NCBI GenBank assembly: GCA_028288765.1 | Contig: JAQGHQ010000038.1 | Coordinates: forward strand, 1 to 34,051 | Direction: 5' to 3' | Source: Gemmataceae bacterium | GTDB taxonomy: Bacteria; Planctomycetota; Planctomycetia; Gemmatales; Gemmataceae | DNA length: 34,051 bases | Part shown: positions 2,236 through 14,111 of the stretch, in pieces | Position numbering within the stretch: the first letter of the stretch is position 1 | How the letters are laid out: every line of letters begins with the position of its first letter | Notes under the pieces: generated by a model | The model's database searches: none | Seen by the model: only the letters and a program-made list of their open reading frames with translations | What the model was told of the DNA's origin: nothing | Translations under genes and position numbers: made by a program

Positions 2236-3297
2236 CTACCCCCCGATCGCGTGCATCGTCCGGTCCGGCTTCACGAACCGGGCGGAATTGATCTCGTGCC
2301 CCTCCCACTTCGCCCAGACCGAGCGGCGGAGGGCGTCGGCGATCGCGGCGTCGTCCGGCGTCGGGCGCCGGAGGAAGTCCTTCACGTCCGTCTCGTCCAG
2401 GGCGAAGAGACAGTTGCGGACCTTCCCCTCGGCCGTCAGGCGGAGCCGGTTGCAGCTCCGGCAGAACGGCCGGCTCACGGACGCGATGATCCCGACCCGC
2501 CCGCCGCCATCGGCGTAGAGGAAGTCCGTCGCCGGGGCGCGGGGGTCGTTGTCCGGGGCCGGGGCGAGCGGCGCGACCTCGCGGCCGAGCAGCTCCAGGA
2601 TCTCGTGGGCGAAGAAGACCTTCTCCCGCTCCCACGCGTCCGCCCCGATCGGCATGTACTCGATGAACCGCAGCTCGAACCCGTGGTCGCGGCAGTACCG
2701 GGCGAGCGGGGCCGCGTCCTGGTCGTTGACCCCGCGGATCGCGACCGCGTTCACCTTCACCCGGTCGAACCCGGCCCGTTTCACCGCCGCCAGCCCGTCC
2801 AGAACCCGGTCCAGCCCGTCGCGGCGGGTGAGTTCGCGGAACCGGCCGGGGTCGAGCGTGTCGAGCGACACGTTCAGCCGCCGCAGCCCGGCGGCGAACA
2901 GATCCCCGGCCTGGTCCGCCAGGAGCACGCCGTTCGTGGTCAACCCGATGTCCTTGATCCCGGGAATCCCGACGAGCATCCGGACCAGCTTGTGCAGGTC
3001 TTTCCGGACCAGCGGCTCCCCGCCGGTGAGTCGAACCTTGTCCACACCCAACCCGGCCGCCACCCGCACGAAGTGAGCCATCTCCTCGAACGTGAGCAGC
3101 TCCGACCGGTCCCGAAAGACCACGTCCTCGGGCATGCAGTAGGTACACCGGAGGTTGCACCGGTCGGTGACGCTGATCCGCAGGTTGTTGTGGACGCGGC
3201 CGAACGTATCCACCAAATGCGGAATGGGGAATGCGGAATGCGGAATATCAGACGAGGCCACATCGCCCAGTAGCTTGAGAGGGTGTTTCGCACTCAT
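2236..3297 (-). CDS. moaA: GTP 3',8-cyclase (molybdopterin precursor synthesis)
   Basis: Radical-SAM enzyme that turns GTP into 3',8-cyclo-GTP, the first step of molybdenum-cofactor synthesis. Of 353 residues, C47-x3-C51-x2-C54 (CNLRCTYC) binds the SAM cluster, LTGGEPLVRKDL follows, and the C-terminal cluster has C279-x2-C282-x13-C296 as in MoaA. The protein ends in the Gly-Gly tail that the enzyme needs. The ATG overlaps the moaE stop as ATGA, suggesting translational coupling. Residues about 18-27 (HSAFPIPH-type) are encoded by four copies of a 7-bp tandem repeat and replace the usual short N-terminal lead before VDTFGRVHNNLRISVTDRC. They lie outside the catalytic barrel, so the enzyme is probably intact. 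Confidence 0.97.
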   Translation of the reverse strand: MSAKHPLKLLGDVASSDIPHSAFPIPHLVDTFGRVHNNLRISVTDRCNLRCTYCMPEDVVFRDRSELLTFEEMAHFVRVAAGLGVDKVRLTGGEPLVRKDLHKLVRMLVGIPGIKDIGLTTNGVLLADQAGDLFAAGLRRLNVSLDTLDPGRFRELTRRDGLDRVLDGLAAVKRAGFDRVKVNAVAIRGVNDQDAAPLARYCRDHGFELRFIEYMPIGADAWEREKVFFAHEILELLGREVAPLAPAPDNDPRAPATDFLYADGGGRVGIIASVSRPFCRSCNRLRLTAEGKVRNCLFALDETDVKDFLRRPTPDDAAIADALRRSVWAKWEGHEINSARFVKPDRTMHAIGG

Positions 3298-3351
3298 TGC
3301 GCGTCCCCCTCAATCGTGTCTTTATTCCGCATTCCGCATTCCGCATTCCGC
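3217..3351. repeat. paired inverted arrays of a 7-bp tandem repeat across the moaE-moaA junction
   Basis: The left array at 3217-3244 is four copies of ATGCGGA (one copy ATGGGGA). The right array at 3324-3351 is four copies of ATTCCGC, the same unit inverted. The 79-base spacer carries the moaE stop and moaA start. As RNA the two arrays could pair over about 28 bp and sequester the junction. The left array encodes moaA residues 18-27 and the right array encodes the moaE C-terminus. Confidence 0.85.
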
Positions 3352-3767
3352 AATTCTGACGTGGGGTGGACCCACCCGCCCACGCCGTCCGGGGCGGTCT
3401 CCTTCTTCCAGATCGGGACGAGCTCCTTGAGCGTGTCGATCGCGTACCGGCAGGCGTCGAACGCGGCGGCCCGGTGCAGGGCGCTCACCGCCACCGCCAC
3501 GCTCACCTCCCCGACCCCGAGCCGGCCGATCCGGTGGACCAGCGCCACCTCCCCGACCGTCCACCGCCGCCGCACCTCGGCCTCGATCTCGGCCATTTTC
3601 TTCTCCGCCATCGGCGGGTAAGCCTCGTAGACGAGGAACTCTGTCACCTGGTCGCCGGTCAGGTCGCGGACGGTGCCGAGGAACAGGGCTACCGCTCCGT
3701 AATGCGGGCCGCGGACGGCCTCGGTCAGGGCGTGGTAGTCGATCGGGTTGTGGGTGAGCCGGACCAT
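3294..3767 (-). CDS. moaE: molybdopterin synthase catalytic subunit
   Basis: Large subunit of molybdopterin synthase, which transfers sulfur from the MoaD thiocarboxylate to precursor Z. Of 157 residues, the family core is clear: GAVALFLGTVRD, FLVYEAYPPMAEKKM, VALVHRIGRLGVGEVSVAVAVSALHR, and the catalytic-loop lysines in ELVPIWKKETAPDG. After GGWVHP the C-terminus has an odd tail, SELRNAECGMRNKDTIEGDAQ, part of which is translated 7-bp tandem repeat (3324-3351). The stop overlaps the moaA ATG by four bases. moaD lies 82 bp upstream on the same strand. No moaC, moaB or moeA is seen here. Confidence 0.96.
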   Translation of the reverse strand: MVRLTHNPIDYHALTEAVRGPHYGAVALFLGTVRDLTGDQVTEFLVYEAYPPMAEKKMAEIEAEVRRRWTVGEVALVHRIGRLGVGEVSVAVAVSALHRAAAFDACRYAIDTLKELVPIWKKETAPDGVGGWVHPTSELRNAECGMRNKDTIEGDAQ

Positions 3768-3781
3768 GACGATATTGTACC

Positions 3782-3800
3782 GCCTGACGGTGGGTCAGGC
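3782..3800. terminator. perfect 7-bp hairpin between moaD and moaE
   Basis: GCCTGAC, loop GGTGG, GTCAGGC. It stands in the 82-bp gap between moaD and moaE. There is no T-run, so it more probably tunes expression or marks a processing site than ends transcription. Confidence 0.4.
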
Positions 3801-3849
3801 GTCCTCGGCGAACGCGATCGTGTACCCGTCGCGGGGTGTGGTCACGGGC

Positions 3850-4095
3850 TCAGCCTCCGCTGACCGGGGGGATGACGGCGACCTCGTCGCCCGCGGAAAG
3901 GGGTCGCAAGTCGTCCGCGAAGTCGTGGTTCACGGCGACCGCGGACCGGGCCAGAAGATCTCCGAGGGCCGGGAACCGGTGGGTAAGTGCGAGGCGGAGA
4001 TCGGCCACCGTCGCGACGGCGGGCACGTCGATGCTCACGGCATCGCTTCCGGCCAGGTCCCGCGCGCGGGCGAACAGGTGAACGGTCAGGGTCAT
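3850..4095 (-). CDS. moaD: molybdopterin synthase sulfur-carrier subunit
   Basis: 81-residue ubiquitin-like protein that carries the thiocarboxylate sulfur used by MoaE. It has TLTVHLFARARDLAGSD at the start of the beta-grasp fold, the ALTHRFPAL helix, AVAVNHDFADD, and the obligatory C-terminus DEVAVIPPVSGG, whose last glycine is adenylated and thiolated. The ATG at 4095 gives the usual family length. An upstream in-frame start at 4182 would run through the inverted repeat at 4107-4197 and is rejected. It is the first of three moa genes on the minus strand (moaD, moaE, moaA). Confidence 0.95.
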   Translation of the reverse strand: MTLTVHLFARARDLAGSDAVSIDVPAVATVADLRLALTHRFPALGDLLARSAVAVNHDFADDLRPLSAGDEVAVIPPVSGG

Positions 4096-4106
4096 GTTCG
4101 ACTTCC

Positions 4107-4197
4107 GGGCGAGCGGGGGGCGTGAGCCCCCCGAGTAAACGCGAAGCACCCCACAGACGTCAACCGCACTCGGGGGGCTCACGCCCCCCGCTCGCCC
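4107..4197. repeat. perfect 30-bp inverted repeat with nested palindromes
   Basis: The arms at 4107-4136 and 4168-4197 are exact reverse complements, separated by 31 bases. Each arm contains its own hairpin, GGGGGC-GTGA-GCCCCC, so the element can form one long stem or two smaller ones. It occupies nearly all of the gap between the FAD/Fe-S oxidoreductase stop (4214) and the moaD start (4095). It may act as a terminator or transcript-processing element, or be a dispersed palindromic repeat. Confidence 0.9.
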
Positions 4198-4213
4198 AGA
4201 ATGCCCCGTTCGC

Positions 4214-7200
4214 CTAATCGCTCACCAACTTGCCGAGCGGTTTGCGGAGCTTCGCCCCGAGCTCGGGGAGCAGCCCGTAGGCGTGGGCGAGGTACTGGAC
4301 CGGGTGCAGGGACCGCTTCCCGGTCCCCTCCTGCATCTGCATCCGGCACGCGCTGCACTCGGTCGAGCCGAACAACACCCCGGGCCGGTTCAGCTCCTCC
4401 AGCATCCGCCGGCCGGCGGCCAGCGAGGTCTCGTAATTCGCCGCCTTCAGTCCCCACGTCCCGGCCATCCCGGAACAGCTCACGTCGATCGTATGGACCC
4501 TCACCCCGGGAATGAGCGCCAACAACTGGGGGCCCGCGGCCGGGCCGTGGAGGGCCTTCAGGTGACACGGGACGTGGTGCCCGAGCGTGACGTCGAGCCG
4601 GCGGAAATCGGTCTTCAGCCGGCCGGCCTGGTGGAGCTCCCACAGGAAGGTGGTGAGCTCGACCGTGTTCGCGGCCAGGGTGGCGGCGTCCGGGTCGGTC
4701 AGGATGTTCAGATAGTCCTGGGACAGCATCAGGGCGGCGGTCGGCTCGGAGCACACGACCCGGTAGCCCTCGCGGACGAGGTCGGCGAGCGCCCGGACGT
4801 TCCGGACCGCGACCTCCCGGGCGGTTTCCACGTCCCCCACCGCGAGCGGGGCCATCCCGCACCCGACCTGCCGCGGCGGGACGTACACCTCGACCCCGTG
4901 GTGCCGCAGCACCGCGACCGTCGCCTCGCCGATGAGCGGGTCGTTGTAGTTCGCGAACACGTCGACGAAATAGGCAACTTTGGGAACGCGGAATGCGGAA
5001 TGTGGAATGCGGAGTGAAGACGAGGGATCTTCCGGTCCGCGGTCCGCGGTCCGCGCTCCGTACTTCTTCGTCAGGCCCATTCCCCGGGCCCGGCGGTAGA
5101 AGCTGCGGAGGGAGAACGCCTGAAGGCGGCGGCGGCGGGACAGGCCGAACACCTTCTCGATCAGCCAGCGGACCGACCGGCGGGACAGCAGCCCGTTCAC
5201 CAGCGGGGCGAAGTTGCTCCCGAGGGTGGCGAACATCTCGGTCCGGGCGAGGACCCAGTCGGCCCGGGTGAGCCCGTGCTCCGCCTGCCGGGCGGCCTTG
5301 GCCTCCAGCATCAGCTTCGACACGTCGACCCGGGCCGGGCACTCGTCCCGGCACATCTTGCAGTTCACACACCCGTCGGCGATCGCCTTCACGTCGTCGC
5401 CGGCCAGCGCCGCCGGGTCGGTCAGCAGCCGGACGAGGTTCGCCATCGCCCGCGGCGACGCCTCCTCCGCCCCGGTCGCGCGGAAGACCGGGCACATCCG
5501 CCCGCGGGGGGAGCGCGACCGGCAGTCCCCGCACCCGGTACACTTCGTCGCCTCGGCGACGGGACCGCCGTCGGGCCACACGAGCAGTGGGGTCAGGAGT
5601 CGGGAGTCCGGGGTCGGCGGAGATACAGAGTCGCCAGGCTTGCTCCCGGTGTCCTGGTCCAGGTTCGGGCTGACCCCTGACCCCTGACCACTGACCACTG
5701 ACCGGAGCGGCCACGCCGGCCGGCTCGGGTCGGGGCCGATGATCTTCCCCGGGTTCAGGATGCCCTTCGGGTCGAAGATCCGCTTCACCTCGCGGAACAC
5801 CGGCAGCACCGGGCCGTACTGCTTCTCCACCCACGGGGTGCGGGCGATCCCGGTCCCGTGCTGGGTGCTGACCGTCCCCCCGAGGGCGAGGGCGAGCCCG
5901 TGGACCGCCTCCGCGACCGGCCAGAGCTTCGCCCGGTCGGCCGGGTCGTCCAGGTCGACGAGCGGGCGGGTGTGGACCTGGCCGGCAAGAGTGTGGACGA
6001 GGAACGACGCGCTCAGCTCGAACCGCTGGAGGACGTCCTGGGTCTGGGCGACGAACTCGGCCAGGGCCTCGGTCGGGACGCCGACGTCCTCGATGAAGGC
6101 GACCGGCCGCGGCCCCTTGCCGAGCCCGTACAGCCCGGCCACCGCCGCCTCCCGCACCCCGCGGACCCGGGCGGTCCCTTCCGGGTCGCAGGTCGGCTCG
6201 GCCAGCACCCCGAGCCGGTGCGTCGCCCTGAGCTGGTCGATCGCCCCCCACGCCCGGTCCGCCGCTTCCCGCTCGGTGTCCCCCTCGAACGTGACCACCA
6301 GCGCCGCCCCGACCGACGGCGGGACCAGCCCGACCGCCTGGGCCGGGCCCGGCGAGCGGGTGCGGGAGAGGAGCCGGCGGTCGAGCAGGTCGCAGCCGAC
6401 CGGGCCGGCCGCCCGGACGTCGAGCCCCGCGCGGAGGGCCGCGTCCAGGGTCGCGAACCCGAGCAGGGTGATGCACACGCCGCCGGGCAGCGGGACCGTC
6501 CGGAGGGTGGCGGCGGTGACGAACCCGAGCGTACCTTCCGACCCGGCGAGCAGCTTCGCCAGGTCGAGCCCGGCGTCGGTCAGCACGTCGTGCAGCAGGT
6601 ATCCGCACCGGTTGAACGCCGTCTGCGGGCGGGTCAGGTGGACCAGCTCCCGGTTGGCTTTCAGCAGGGCTTCGGTCGCGCTCAGGATGTCCCTGGTCCT
6701 TGGTCCCTGGTCCCTGGTCCCTGGTCCTTCGCCCGTCGGCGGGTCGAGCTGGTCGGGCCACCCGGGGGGAAGACCGGAGGACGAAGGACGAAGGACGAAG
6801 GACGATTCCCCGTTATCCCACACCACCCCCAACCCCGAGACGTAGTCCCGCGTGTACCCGTACCGGGAGGCGTTCCCGCCGGAGGCGTTGGTGGCGACCA
6901 TCCCGCCGACCGTACAGCTGCCCCCGCTCGCCGGGTCCGGGCCGAACCGCCGGCCGTGCTTCGCCAGCGCGGCGTTGAGCTCGACCAGCACGACCCCGGG
7001 CTCGACGGTGACGGCGTCGGACGAGATGTCGAGGACGCGGCGGAAGTGGACGCTCAGGTCGACGACCAGCCCCGGCCCGAGCGACTCGCCGGCGACCCCG
7101 GTCCCGGCCCCGCGGGGGATGAGGGGGATCTGGTGCTCGAAGCAGTACCGGACGAGCACGGCCAGGTCGTCGGCGTCCTGCGGGATCGCGACCCCGAGCG

Positions 7201-7318
7201 GGGTGACCTGGAACGGGCTGGCGTCGGTCGAGTAGAGCCCGCGGACCAGCCCGTCGAACGTGAGCCGGCCGCGGAACGAGTTCCGGAGGTCGTCGGCAAT
7301 CTGGTCGGAGTCGGGCAC
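4214..7318 (-). CDS. FAD-linked oxidase / Fe-S oxidoreductase fusion (GlcD-GlcF type 2-hydroxyacid dehydrogenase)
   Basis: 1034 residues. Residues about 45-230 form the FAD-binding PCMH domain (IPLIPRGAGTGVAGES, PASGGSCTVGGMVATNASGG) and about 265-535 the FAD-oxidase C domain (AGQVHTRPLVDL, STQHGTGIARTPWVEKQYGP, FDPKGILNPGKI). Two cysteine motifs follow at about 593-610 (CTGCGDC...CP) and 648-660 (CVNCKMCRDECP), the second a full 4Fe-4S set. The C-terminal CCG cysteine-rich repeats include VPCHLKAL and ECSACRMQMQ. The family oxidises glycolate, D-lactate or 2-hydroxyglutarate and feeds electrons to the quinone pool. The substrate here is unknown. Three linker segments, at residues about 171-210, 539-577 and 753-777, are translated from 7-bp tandem-repeat arrays and lie between domains. 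The first cluster has an atypical spacing (CRSRSPRGRMCP). Confidence 0.93.
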   Translation of the reverse strand: MPDSDQIADDLRNSFRGRLTFDGLVRGLYSTDASPFQVTPLGVAIPQDADDLAVLVRYCFEHQIPLIPRGAGTGVAGESLGPGLVVDLSVHFRRVLDISSDAVTVEPGVVLVELNAALAKHGRRFGPDPASGGSCTVGGMVATNASGGNASRYGYTRDYVSGLGVVWDNGESSFVLRPSSSGLPPGWPDQLDPPTGEGPGTRDQGPRTRDILSATEALLKANRELVHLTRPQTAFNRCGYLLHDVLTDAGLDLAKLLAGSEGTLGFVTAATLRTVPLPGGVCITLLGFATLDAALRAGLDVRAAGPVGCDLLDRRLLSRTRSPGPAQAVGLVPPSVGAALVVTFEGDTEREAADRAWGAIDQLRATHRLGVLAEPTCDPEGTARVRGVREAAVAGLYGLGKGPRPVAFIEDVGVPTEALAEFVAQTQDVLQRFELSASFLVHTLAGQVHTRPLVDLDDPADRAKLWPVAEAVHGLALALGGTVSTQHGTGIARTPWVEKQYGPVLPVFREVKRIFDPKGILNPGKIIGPDPSRPAWPLRSVVSGQGSGVSPNLDQDTGSKPGDSVSPPTPDSRLLTPLLVWPDGGPVAEATKCTGCGDCRSRSPRGRMCPVFRATGAEEASPRAMANLVRLLTDPAALAGDDVKAIADGCVNCKMCRDECPARVDVSKLMLEAKAARQAEHGLTRADWVLARTEMFATLGSNFAPLVNGLLSRRSVRWLIEKVFGLSRRRRLQAFSLRSFYRRARGMGLTKKYGARTADRGPEDPSSSLRIPHSAFRVPKVAYFVDVFANYNDPLIGEATVAVLRHHGVEVYVPPRQVGCGMAPLAVGDVETAREVAVRNVRALADLVREGYRVVCSEPTAALMLSQDYLNILTDPDAATLAANTVELTTFLWELHQAGRLKTDFRRLDVTLGHHVPCHLKALHGPAAGPQLLALIPGVRVHTIDVSCSGMAGTWGLKAANYETSLAAGRRMLEELNRPGVLFGSTECSACRMQMQEGTGKRSLHPVQYLAHAYGLLPELGAKLRKPLGKLVSD
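4988..5061. repeat. paired 7-bp tandem-repeat arrays inside the FAD/Fe-S oxidoreductase gene (third linker)
   Basis: Four copies of GCGGAAT-type heptamers at 4988-5015 and four of GGTCCGC-type at 5034-5061, separated by 18 bases. The second array, reverse-complemented, reads GCGGACC, so the two arrays are inverted relatives of each other. They encode a SSSLRIPHSAFRVP-like and a TADRGPED-like stretch between the ferredoxin-like part and the CCG domains. Confidence 0.85.
5589..5704. repeat. paired 7-bp tandem-repeat arrays inside the FAD/Fe-S oxidoreductase gene (second linker)
   Basis: Four degenerate heptamers of the form GGxGTCx at 5589-5616 and five of CTGACCx at 5670-5704, with a 53-base spacer. 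Reverse-complemented, the second array is GGGTCAG-like, again an inverted relative of the first. Translated on the minus strand they give a SVVSGQGSGVSP-type and a PDSRLLTPLL-type linker between the FAD domain and the iron-sulfur domain. Confidence 0.8.
6689..6806. repeat. paired 7-bp tandem-repeat arrays inside the FAD/Fe-S oxidoreductase gene (first linker)
   Basis: Six copies of GTCC(C/T)TG at 6689-6730 and four of GGACGAA (last copy GGACGAT) at 6779-6806, with a 48-base spacer. Here the C-rich array is on the left and the G-rich array on the right, the reverse of the other three pairs. They encode GPGTRDQGPRTRD and SSFVLRPSSS stretches inside the FAD-binding domain, apparently in a surface loop. 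Confidence 0.85.
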
Positions 7319-7368: not shown

Positions 7369-7493
7369 GGGTCGGCCCGCCCAGGGCTCCCGCCCTGGGC
7401 TACAGACGGTCGCCGCTCCGCGGCTTCAGACTTCTTCGCCCCGGAGGGGCATTCGTCCGTAGCCCAGGGCGGGAGCCCTGGGCGGGCCGACCC
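7369..7493. repeat. perfect 35-bp inverted repeat, palindromic intergenic element
   Basis: The arms at 7369-7403 and 7459-7493 are exact reverse complements, and pairing continues inward with one mismatch. The loop holds CGCCGCTCCGCGGCT (7411-7425), which occurs again at 26642-26656 next to another GGGCTAC-ended hairpin, so this is one member of a dispersed repeat family. It fills the gap between folE (stop at 7503) and the start of the FAD/Fe-S oxidoreductase (7318), both minus strand. Confidence 0.92.
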
Positions 7494-13456: not shown

Positions 13457-13662
13457 GGTCTTCAGCCCGAAGGGCTGGGACAACATAGCCCAGGGCAACG
13501 CCCTGGGTCGGCTAACTCCGGTCACCCCGGCCTCTCCGATGGGTCCGCCGGACGGACTCCCCGGCCTTCCGGTCCCAGCCCTTCAGGCTGGGCGGCGGTT
13601 CGATCTCGCTCCCCAGGGCGTTGCCCTGGGCTATGATGTCCCAGCCCTTCGGGCTGAAGACC
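13457..13662. repeat. 206-bp element bounded by a 51-bp near-perfect inverted repeat
   Basis: The arms at 13457-13507 and 13612-13662 differ at one position. Each arm is two smaller hairpins in a row: CAGCCCGAAGGGCTG and GCCCAGGGC-xxx-GCCCTGGGC. The interior carries a further CAGCC-TTCA-GGCTG hairpin. The right-arm sequence CCCAGGGCGTTGCCCTGGG occurs again at 33990-34008, and a related CCCAGGGC unit bounds the element at 7369-7493. No ORF inside it is supported. Confidence 0.9.
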
Positions 13663-13818: not shown

Positions 13819-14111
13819 GGACTGTCAAAACCTGCCAAACACTGCCACCGGTCAGATAACCCGGTTGCCTGACGACAGAAATACGCTCCGGGGGCTGTCA
13901 AAACCTGCCAAACACTGCCACCGGTCGTTTTTTCGTCAATTGATGAGATATTTGAGGAACATTCGGATTGCTCACACACGACATTGGGGATCGGAGCCTG
14001 GGGACTGTCAGAACCTGCCAGACGCTGCCACGGTCAGACAACCGCACGACCGGAGGCCGGAGGCCGGAGAAAGCCTCCGGGGACTGCCAAAACCTGCCAA
14101 ACACTGCCACC
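13819..14111 (+). repeat. four direct repeats of a ~34-bp unit upstream of the PVC-type cytochrome gene
   Basis: The units begin at about 13819, 13890, 14000 and 14079. They share CTGTCAAAACCTGCCAAA followed by CACTGCCACCGGTC. The third copy has four base changes and the fourth diverges at its end. Start-to-start distances are 71, 110 and 79 bp. The spacers are unequal and not unique-spacer-like: some repeat GGAGGC-type sequence and one contains the hairpin CCGGAGGC-xxxxxxxx-GCCTCCGG at 14057-14080. It is not a CRISPR. No coding use is supported. Confidence 0.88.

What the first reader, a model, noticed from the sequence alone, without database searches (positions are those of the whole stretch)
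3217..6806. Four paired, inverted arrays of 7-bp tandem repeats with different heptamers but one layout
Seen directly: arrays at 3217-3244/3324-3351 (ATGCGGA vs ATTCCGC), 4988-5015/5034-5061 (GCGGAAT vs GGTCCGC), 5589-5616/5670-5704 (GGxGTCx vs CTGACCx) and 6689-6730/6779-6806 (GTCCCTG vs GGACGAA). Every array is exactly 7-bp periodic with 4-6 copies. In each pair the second array is an inverted relative of the first, with an 18-79 bp spacer. The heptamers differ between pairs, so this is a conserved architecture with variable sequence, unlike an ordinary microsatellite. It could be a mobile or replication-slippage-driven element, or a hairpin-forming class of repeat. Four within 3.6 kb is striking, and none is obvious in the rest of the window.
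Basis: partly seen in the sequence, partly recalled or inferred. Interest (0 to 1): 0.78.

Follow-up and report, generated by a model that had tools for sequence, protein, structure and literature searches.

The report
In-gene hairpins with swappable repeat arms
The four repeat pairs look like copies of a small hairpin-forming DNA element scattered through this planctomycete genome, often sitting in frame inside ordinary enzymes at tolerant loops, and related species can keep a hairpin at the same loop while its repeat sequence differs.

Summary
Period-7 arrays lie at the stated places and form inverted pairs; pair 3 is degenerate and folds weakly. They are not local oddities: the layout (heptamer array, short core, inverted heptamer array) recurs through this genome, in 39 of 294 Planctomycetota genomes searched, and in many other phyla.

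Pairs 2-4 sit in frame in one FAD/FeS oxidoreductase, in loops AlphaFold models with low confidence. Pair 1 spans the moaE/moaA junction. Of 31 pairs classified in this genome, 16 are in frame and open inside genes, including RecD2, CarB, QueG and homoserine dehydrogenase.

In same-genus genomes the same loops are short, or filled by another heptamer, a hexamer hairpin, a non-repeat palindrome, or sequence with no array. Some keep a GAAGAC-like core.

Best reading: a Rickettsia-palindrome-like in-gene element whose arms are tandem arrays that turn over quickly. Mobility and its agent are inferred. Inverted heptamer pairs (Xanthomonas) and in-gene palindromes (Rickettsia) are known separately; their combination, with different arms at fixed sites, is the new part.

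The parts
3216..3246 (+). pair 1, left arm: GCGGAAT x4.4, inside the N-terminal extension of moaA
   Evidence: ORF 2236-3297; Pfam Radical_SAM + Mob_synth_C
3324..3352 (-). pair 1, right arm: ATTCCGC x4.1, inside the C-terminal tail of moaE
   Evidence: ORF 3294-3767, Pfam MoaE
3247..3323 (.). pair 1 spacer, 77 bp, holds the moaE stop / moaA start; AAAGAC next to the moaE-side arm on the coding strand
4983..5013 (+). pair 2, left arm: GCGGAAT x4.4 (protein loop site 2)
5033..5060 (-). pair 2, right arm: CGGTCCG x4
5014..5032 (.). pair 2 core GTGAAGACGAGGGATCTTC (GAAGAC / TCTTC inner inverted motif)
5589..5617 (+). pair 3, left arm: degenerate GGGGTCR-type heptamers (loop site 3)
   Evidence: 5592-5617, score 31; by eye
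5670..5703 (-). pair 3, right arm: CTGACCM x4.9
6689..6727 (+). pair 4, left arm: GTCCCTG x5.6 (pyrimidine-rich arm first, opposite to most pairs; loop site 4)
6778..6805 (-). pair 4, right arm: AGGACGA x4
4214..7318 (-). FAD/FeS oxidoreductase, 1034 aa; pairs 4, 3 and 2 encode residues about 172-210, 539-577 and 753-779 (coordinate arithmetic)
   Evidence: Pfam FAD_binding_4, FAD-oxidase_C, Fer4_8, CCG; AlphaFold segments below pLDDT 50: 181-202, 542-574, 766-776
2236..3297 (-). moaA
3294..3767 (-). moaE

Best explanation
Each pair is one copy of a small dispersed palindromic element: arm of tandem heptamers, short core, inverted arm. The genome holds many copies. In this genus it has repeatedly ended up inside reading frames, at loops, turns and gene ends where an in-frame addition is tolerated, and is read as a low-complexity loop, much as Rickettsia palindromic elements are. 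After arrival the arms evolve fast: each arm tends to one unit (slippage or unequal exchange), so orthologous loops carry different units, sometimes a different period, or another palindrome, while position, frame and sometimes a RAAGAC core remain. Shown: architecture, recurrence, in-frame location, short and filled orthologous loops, unit differences at the same place. Inferred: insertion as the source, slippage as the homogeniser, translation into protein, absence of a host function.
For: Inverted pairing genome-wide (57 matches at 27 loci vs 1 control match; opposite polarity 10 matches at 5 loci, control 0). Outer ends are phase-locked in 20 loci: -1 C 35/40, -2 G 34/40, -3 T 27/40, near random from -7 outward. 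Inner boundary motif in 27 loci: GAAGA in 19 of 54 half-flanks against shuffled mean 1.25, max 5. In-frame: of 19 pairs with coding flanks on one strand, 16 are in frame and open; P = 7e-6 if frame were random. Non-repeat hairpins of the same genome: 3 of 60 non-edge ones in frame and open. Orthologous loops are short in G001 and G004 (PALP and homoserine-DH genes), G004 (QueG), and G001/G003/G004 (CarB), and elsewhere filled, in 11 of 12 filled loops of other species listed with a stem above the shuffled maximum or a period-7 array, by other heptamers, an AGTG[TC]G hexamer hairpin or non-repeat palindromes; the exception is the AIRS gene of G002. Site 3 carries a period-7 array in 5 of 6 same-genus genomes and in none of the 5 outgroup genomes where both anchors matched. 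RAAGAC occurs in 9 of 30 orthologous loops or junctions against 1.35 expected.
Against: No excess of flanking direct repeats (3.55 vs 3.56 shuffled, 31 loci), though one locus (C203:11402) has an 8-bp direct repeat near both ends. No mover identified. Unit order is not mirrored between arms, so arms are not simple inverted copies. In 25 other planctomycete genomes GAAGAC is not enriched (1 of 124; the shorter GAAGA is mildly so, 7 of 124, shuffled mean 1.45, max 6). At sites 3 and 4 relatives show single arrays without a hairpin, G002 shows neither at sites 2-4 nor in its AIRS gene, and only a 9-bp stem in homoserine DH. Pair 3 folds weakly. In other genomes elements mostly avoid genes (35 of 76 vs 75% for random positions; G004 1 of 5 vs 90%), so in-gene placement belongs to this genus, not to the class.
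Confidence: 0.6

Rival explanations
1. Local origin without mobility: polymerase slippage in 7-bp steps makes an array from local sequence, and template switching at the fork makes the inverted arm. Different loci are not copies of one element.
For: Units differ between loci and species; arms of one locus resemble each other more than arms of other loci in G000 (0.884 vs 0.820, max of 300 shuffles 0.865; 21 pairs, one locus counted twice) without mirrored unit order; single-arm arrays exist; period can be 6, 7 or 8.
Against: Phase-locked outer ends and a shared inner motif at unrelated loci; repeated cores within single genomes such as G304, G177 and G094; perfect non-repeat palindromes at the same loop in relatives.
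Confidence: 0.25
2. Recurrent independent insertion: several unrelated palindromic families in each species land in the few loops a protein can tolerate, so shared positions reflect tolerance, not descent with arm turnover.
For: Non-heptamer palindromes at the same loops in G003 and G005; three kinase-like genes of one genome carry a copy at the same turn before the DFG motif; about 115 hairpins with arms of 18 bp or more per Mb in this genome sample.
Against: Residual core similarity (RAAGAC, 9 of 30 vs 1.35 expected), for example homoserine DH in G000, G003 and G005; orthologous units at sites 3 and 4 slightly more alike than unrelated ones (4.5 and 4.3 of 7 vs 3.8; no significance test made).
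Confidence: 0.4
3. Functional nucleic-acid elements (regulatory RNA hairpins, G-quadruplexes, protein-binding arrays), as proposed for Xanthomonas/Nostoc and Geobacter.
For: Those papers propose such roles for similar heptamer arrays (PMC4692102, PMC2700814, passages read); stable folds for pairs 1, 2 and 4.
Against: The unit sequence is not kept between species; about half of the classified copies lie inside coding sequence of unrelated genes; short loops in relatives.
Confidence: 0.1
4. They are REPINs moved by RAYT (Y1_Tnp) transposases.
For: PF01797 found in 34 of 39 pair-bearing genomes vs 151 of 255 others (hand-tallied; Fisher p 4e-4); not corrected for relatedness or genome size.
Against: No heptamer array in the flanks (up to 1.5 kb, shorter at one contig end) of the six PF01797 genes of this genome; pair-bearing G059, G079, G169, G224 and G284 show no PF01797 match; other hairpins here begin with GTAG and are better REP candidates (the GTAG tag is recalled from the title of PMC3733652).
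Confidence: 0.08
5. Assembly artefact or chance.
For: Draft genome of 615 contigs.
Against: Independent same-genus assemblies, one of them a single contig (G004), carry arrays at the same sites or elsewhere; shuffled controls give none.
Confidence: 0.01

Closest known systems
Rickettsia (and Wolbachia) palindromic elements, RPE (reviews PMC10969869 and PMC2229807, passages read)
   Same: Palindromes of about 105-150 bp, in frame inside protein genes and also between genes; inserts can be tolerated.
   Different: RPE families share sequence and encode conserved peptides; here arms are tandem heptamers that differ between loci and between species at the same site.
Convergent GGGAATC heptamer pairs of Xanthomonas and GGGGA(C/T)T repeats of Nostoc (PMC4692102, passages and section 10 read)
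   Same: Heptamer arrays, mostly four units; 70 and 75 convergent inverted cases in two Xanthomonas genomes.
   Different: 89-93% intergenic and the paper treats one heptamer family; here several heptamers, often intragenic and in frame.
Geobacter metallireducens four-heptamer elements, 49 copies (PMC2700814, passages read)
   Same: Four tandem heptamers, within and between genes.
   Different: Single consensus GGACCGG; inverted pairing not stated in the passages read; proposed as regulatory RNA.
Nostoc tRNA-Leu(UAA) intron P6b heptanucleotide hairpin (PMC3488679, passage read)
   Same: Degenerate heptamers base-pair into a hairpin; copy number varies.
   Different: One locus, in an intron.
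TAACTGA direct repeats of marine Beggiatoaceae (PMC4679880, passages read)
   Same: Heptamer arrays of 2-6 copies dispersed in a genome.
   Different: One heptamer, mostly intergenic, one inverted repeat only.
Nostoc small dispersed repeats embedded in heptamers (Elhai 2008, recalled only)
   Same: Short dispersed core within tandem heptamers.
   Different: Not compared here.

Membership tests
Rickettsia palindromic element-like in-gene palindromes | Palindrome inserted in frame in protein genes with the reading frame kept | tested here: met
   16 of 31 classified pairs in frame and open; pairs 2-4 in one enzyme
Rickettsia palindromic element-like in-gene palindromes | Conserved element sequence within a family | tested here: not met
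   Arms differ by locus and species; only a short inner motif is shared
Convergent heptamer inverted repeats (Xanthomonas type) | Two heptamer arrays in close convergent orientation | tested here: met
Convergent heptamer inverted repeats (Xanthomonas type) | Mostly intergenic | tested here: not met
   22 of 30 spanned by an open frame, like random positions (0.73 vs 0.76)
MITE | Terminal inverted repeats | tested here: met
   arms form inverted repeats
MITE | Target-site duplication | tested here: not met
   no excess over shuffles in 31 loci; one locus with an 8-bp direct repeat
MITE | Parent transposon with matching ends | not tested
   only PF01797 genes were examined
REPIN/RAYT | Repeat adjacent to the RAYT gene | tested here: not met
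   0 of 6 loci

The most novel reading that the evidence does not exclude
The loop is a long-lived hairpin site whose arms are rewritten: heptamer to another heptamer, to a hexamer, to a non-repeat palindrome, around a retained core and in a kept reading frame. That would imply an active process that copies or exchanges hairpin arms as a unit, seeding fast-evolving loops in housekeeping proteins.
Probability: 0.25. Interest if true: 0.85.

Novelty: new variant of a known kind. Interest (0 to 1): 0.62.

Why it matters
Over-represented heptamer arrays in bacteria have been reported (PMC4692102, passages read), but I know of no accepted origin. This genus offers a natural experiment: same loops, same frame, short and filled states, and different arms in each species. 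It makes mobility versus slippage testable and suggests a route by which palindromic DNA adds loops to core enzymes such as CarB, RecD2 and homoserine dehydrogenase. It may also account for some low-complexity inserts seen in annotated proteins (inference).

Tried and rejected
Target-site duplication: no excess, one 8-bp exception at C203:11402. Outer inverted flank beyond the arms: none (199 of 500 shuffles as good). Mirrored unit order between arms: none, apart from one G004 pair seen by eye (L123). GAAGAC as a phylum-wide core: not supported (1 of 124), though GAAGA is mildly enriched (7 of 124). RAYT as neighbour: not found. Array-array recombination after moaE as the cause of the neighbour gene's loss: no array after moaE in the relatives read. 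Selection for stop-free heptamers: 16 of 16 in-frame elements have arms stop-free in six frames against 76% expected for random heptamers, but 17 of 20 arrays of the G000 sample are stop-free anyway, so this is weak (4 of 11 in G004).

Searches for prior print on planctomycete heptamer pairs or in-gene palindromes. None of the listed titles or abstracts reports them, but several listings were capped (for example 20 of 567 and 10 of 381 papers) and most subscription papers are not in that library.
Full report
What is there. The window carries four inverted pairs of period-7 arrays, as stated. At a fixed threshold there are eight period-7 arrays in 34 kb (seven of the eight arms plus a single array at 14050-14069), one period-4 array, none at periods 5, 6 and 8-16, and none at periods 6-8 after local shuffling. 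Pairs 1, 2 and 4 fold better than 200, 199 and 199 of 200 shuffles; pair 3 does not stand out (13 of 200 as good).

Where they sit. Pairs 2, 3 and 4 are inside ORF 4214-7318 (minus strand), an FAD/FeS oxidoreductase by Pfam. Pair 1 has one arm in the moaE tail and one in the moaA head. The AlphaFold model of the oxidoreductase (22-row alignment, mean pLDDT 84) has three segments of ten or more residues below pLDDT 50: 181-202, 542-574 and 766-776. By coordinate arithmetic these fall within the three elements (residues about 172-210, 539-577 and 753-779). Low confidence is also what a poorly aligned insert would give, so this shows loops, not disorder.

Genome-wide. GCGGAAT 21-mers with up to one mismatch hit 58 places, reversed control 0. 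A generic inverted-pair pattern with GGA-type units gives 57 matches at 27 loci, control 1; the opposite polarity gives 10 matches at 5 loci, control 0. In contigs C1-C40 (507 kb) period 7 leads with 14 arrays, against at most 4 for any other period from 4 to 16; in 400 kb of the single-contig relative G004 it leads with 11 against at most 4. Samples of G006, G013, G015 and G038 (400 kb in all) have no period-7 array.

Anatomy. In this genome the arm starts in a fixed phase (RAATGC-GGA; 20 loci). It is followed inward by a purine motif near SRAAGAC on both sides (GAAGAC in 9 and GAAGA in 19 of 54 half-flanks; shuffled maxima 3 and 5), then a variable loop. In 25 other planctomycete genomes GAAGAC is not enriched (1 of 124) and GAAGA only mildly (7 of 124, shuffled max 6); single genomes there have their own repeated cores. 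Units of the two arms are alike in consensus but their order is not mirrored.

In-frame location. Of 31 distinct pairs classified (window pair 3 was not among them), 16 are in frame and open inside a gene, 3 have flanks on one strand in different frames (one is window pair 1, a gene junction), 4 lie between opposite strands, 6 are unclear and 2 are at edges. The pairs come partly from loci fetched by heptamer patterns, so this is not a random sample. In-frame hosts include RecD2, CarB, QueG, homoserine dehydrogenase, an ABC ATPase, and PALP and AIRS domain enzymes (Pfam; I read the last two as threonine synthase and PurL). Three genes that I read as kinases from their HRDLKP and DFG motifs (no Pfam test) carry a copy at the same turn. 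Of 16 matches to a kinase DNA pattern 15 were readable and 2 carried it; the third, on contig C216, was found through its pair. Non-repeat hairpins in the same genome rarely lie in frame (3 of 60 non-edge, 16 more at edges). Elements elsewhere mostly avoid genes (35 of 76 evaluated in an open frame vs 75% for random positions; G004 1 of 5 vs 90%), while here they do not (22 of 30 vs 76%).

Relatives. The same loops were read in same-genus genomes. Site 3: arrays begin within about ten bases after the conserved PAWP(L/I)R motif in G000, G001, G003, G004 and G005, with units GGTCAGT/GGGGTCA, GGGGACA, GGGCGGT, GGAGCC(G/T) and AGTGGAC; G002 has none. moaA junction: G001 has GCAGCGT followed by GAAGAC, G003 GCGGAAC-type followed by AAAGAC, G041 of another genus a long AGAACCC array; the scan prints no array for G002, G004, G013 or G017, though G004 has a stem above shuffles; no moaA ortholog was found in G005. 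In G001-G004 and G041 a phosphatase-like gene (my reading of its RHGET motif, not Pfam-tested) lies between moaE and moaA; it is missing in G000.

PALP enzyme: short turn in G001 and G004, heptamer hairpins in G000 (GGAATGC) and G002 (GGAACGC), a 24-bp perfect non-repeat palindrome in G003, a G/C-rich palindrome with GAAGAC in G005. Homoserine dehydrogenase: short in G001 and G004; heptamers in G000 and G003; in G005 an AGTG[TC]G hexamer hairpin around AAAGACA...ACGG...CTTCTTC, which resembles the G000 core; in G002 a long loop with no array and a 9-bp stem. QueG (G002 not read): short in G004; heptamers in G000 and G001; non-repeat palindromes in G003 and G005. CarB: short in G001, G003 and G004; heptamers in G000 and G002; a palindrome with GAAGAC in G005. 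AIRS enzyme, read only in G002: a long loop with no array and no stem above shuffles. Sites 2-4 in G002: neither. In 30 filled or unfilled loops and junctions of other species RAAGAC is found in 9, 1.35 expected; the eight short loops named above and site 2 of G004 were not in that count, and the hit in G002 homoserine dehydrogenase lies at the loop's edge. Units also form loose species dialects: most listed G002 arrays are GGAACGC.

Distribution. The exact GGAATGC 20-mer occurs in 7 of 59 genomes: the six of this genus and G041. The generic GGA-type inverted pair occurs in 39 of 294 Planctomycetota genomes; the reversed control hits 5 of 294. No reversed control was run for that scan.

Reading. 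The parts match two known kinds at once: convergent heptamer pairs (Xanthomonas, 89-93% intergenic) and in-gene palindromes (Rickettsia). A membership claim fails for each on one defining feature, so I call it a new variant. I favour an inserted palindromic element whose arms turn over. Whether the orthologous copies descend from one insertion with rewritten arms or from repeated landings in tolerant loops is open; shared RAAGAC favours the former in part. The mover is unknown: Y1_Tnp genes are commoner in pair-bearing genomes (34 of 39 vs 151 of 255, hand-tallied, Fisher), but no array lies in the fetched flanks of the six in this genome.

Noticed in passing
window 4103-4201: Non-repeat hairpin (34-bp arms, GAGCGGGGGGCGTGAGCCCCCCGAGT type); very similar arms recur in L042, L052 and L058, so this looks like another dispersed palindrome family.
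   Followed up: partly
window 7369-7493 and 13457-13662: Two further long hairpins with arms holding GCCCAGGGC / CGCCCTGGG, a type that recurs across the genome sample.
   Followed up: no
genome sample L031-L070, L195-L210: 80 hairpins with arms of 18 bp or more in 698 kb (about 115 per Mb; 60 of them printed), 0 after shuffling, against 35 in 400 kb of G004, 0 in 240 kb of G006 and G013, 2 in 40 kb of G015 and 1 in 120 kb of G038. Five start at base 1 of a contig, suggesting assembly breaks at hairpins. Some begin with GTAG, like REP elements.
   Followed up: partly
window 3294-3300: moaE and moaA overlap by ATGA here, and a phosphatase-like gene found between them in G001-G004 and G041 is absent: probably a deletion ending at the array, though the outgroups G013 and G017 also show no such gene in the stretch between.
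   Followed up: partly
window 13821-13847 and 14083-14109: Two copies of an ACTGCCAAAA tandem repeat near the start of the ORF of a DUF7133/HEAT/cytochrome c protein.
   Followed up: no
L123:4165-4259 (G004): One pair in which a variant unit (GGGAGGA) is mirrored in both arms, unlike the general rule.
   Followed up: no
L071:11402-11489 (contig C203): The one element of 31 with an 8-bp direct repeat (TGGTTCTC) near both ends, a possible target-site duplication.
   Followed up: no
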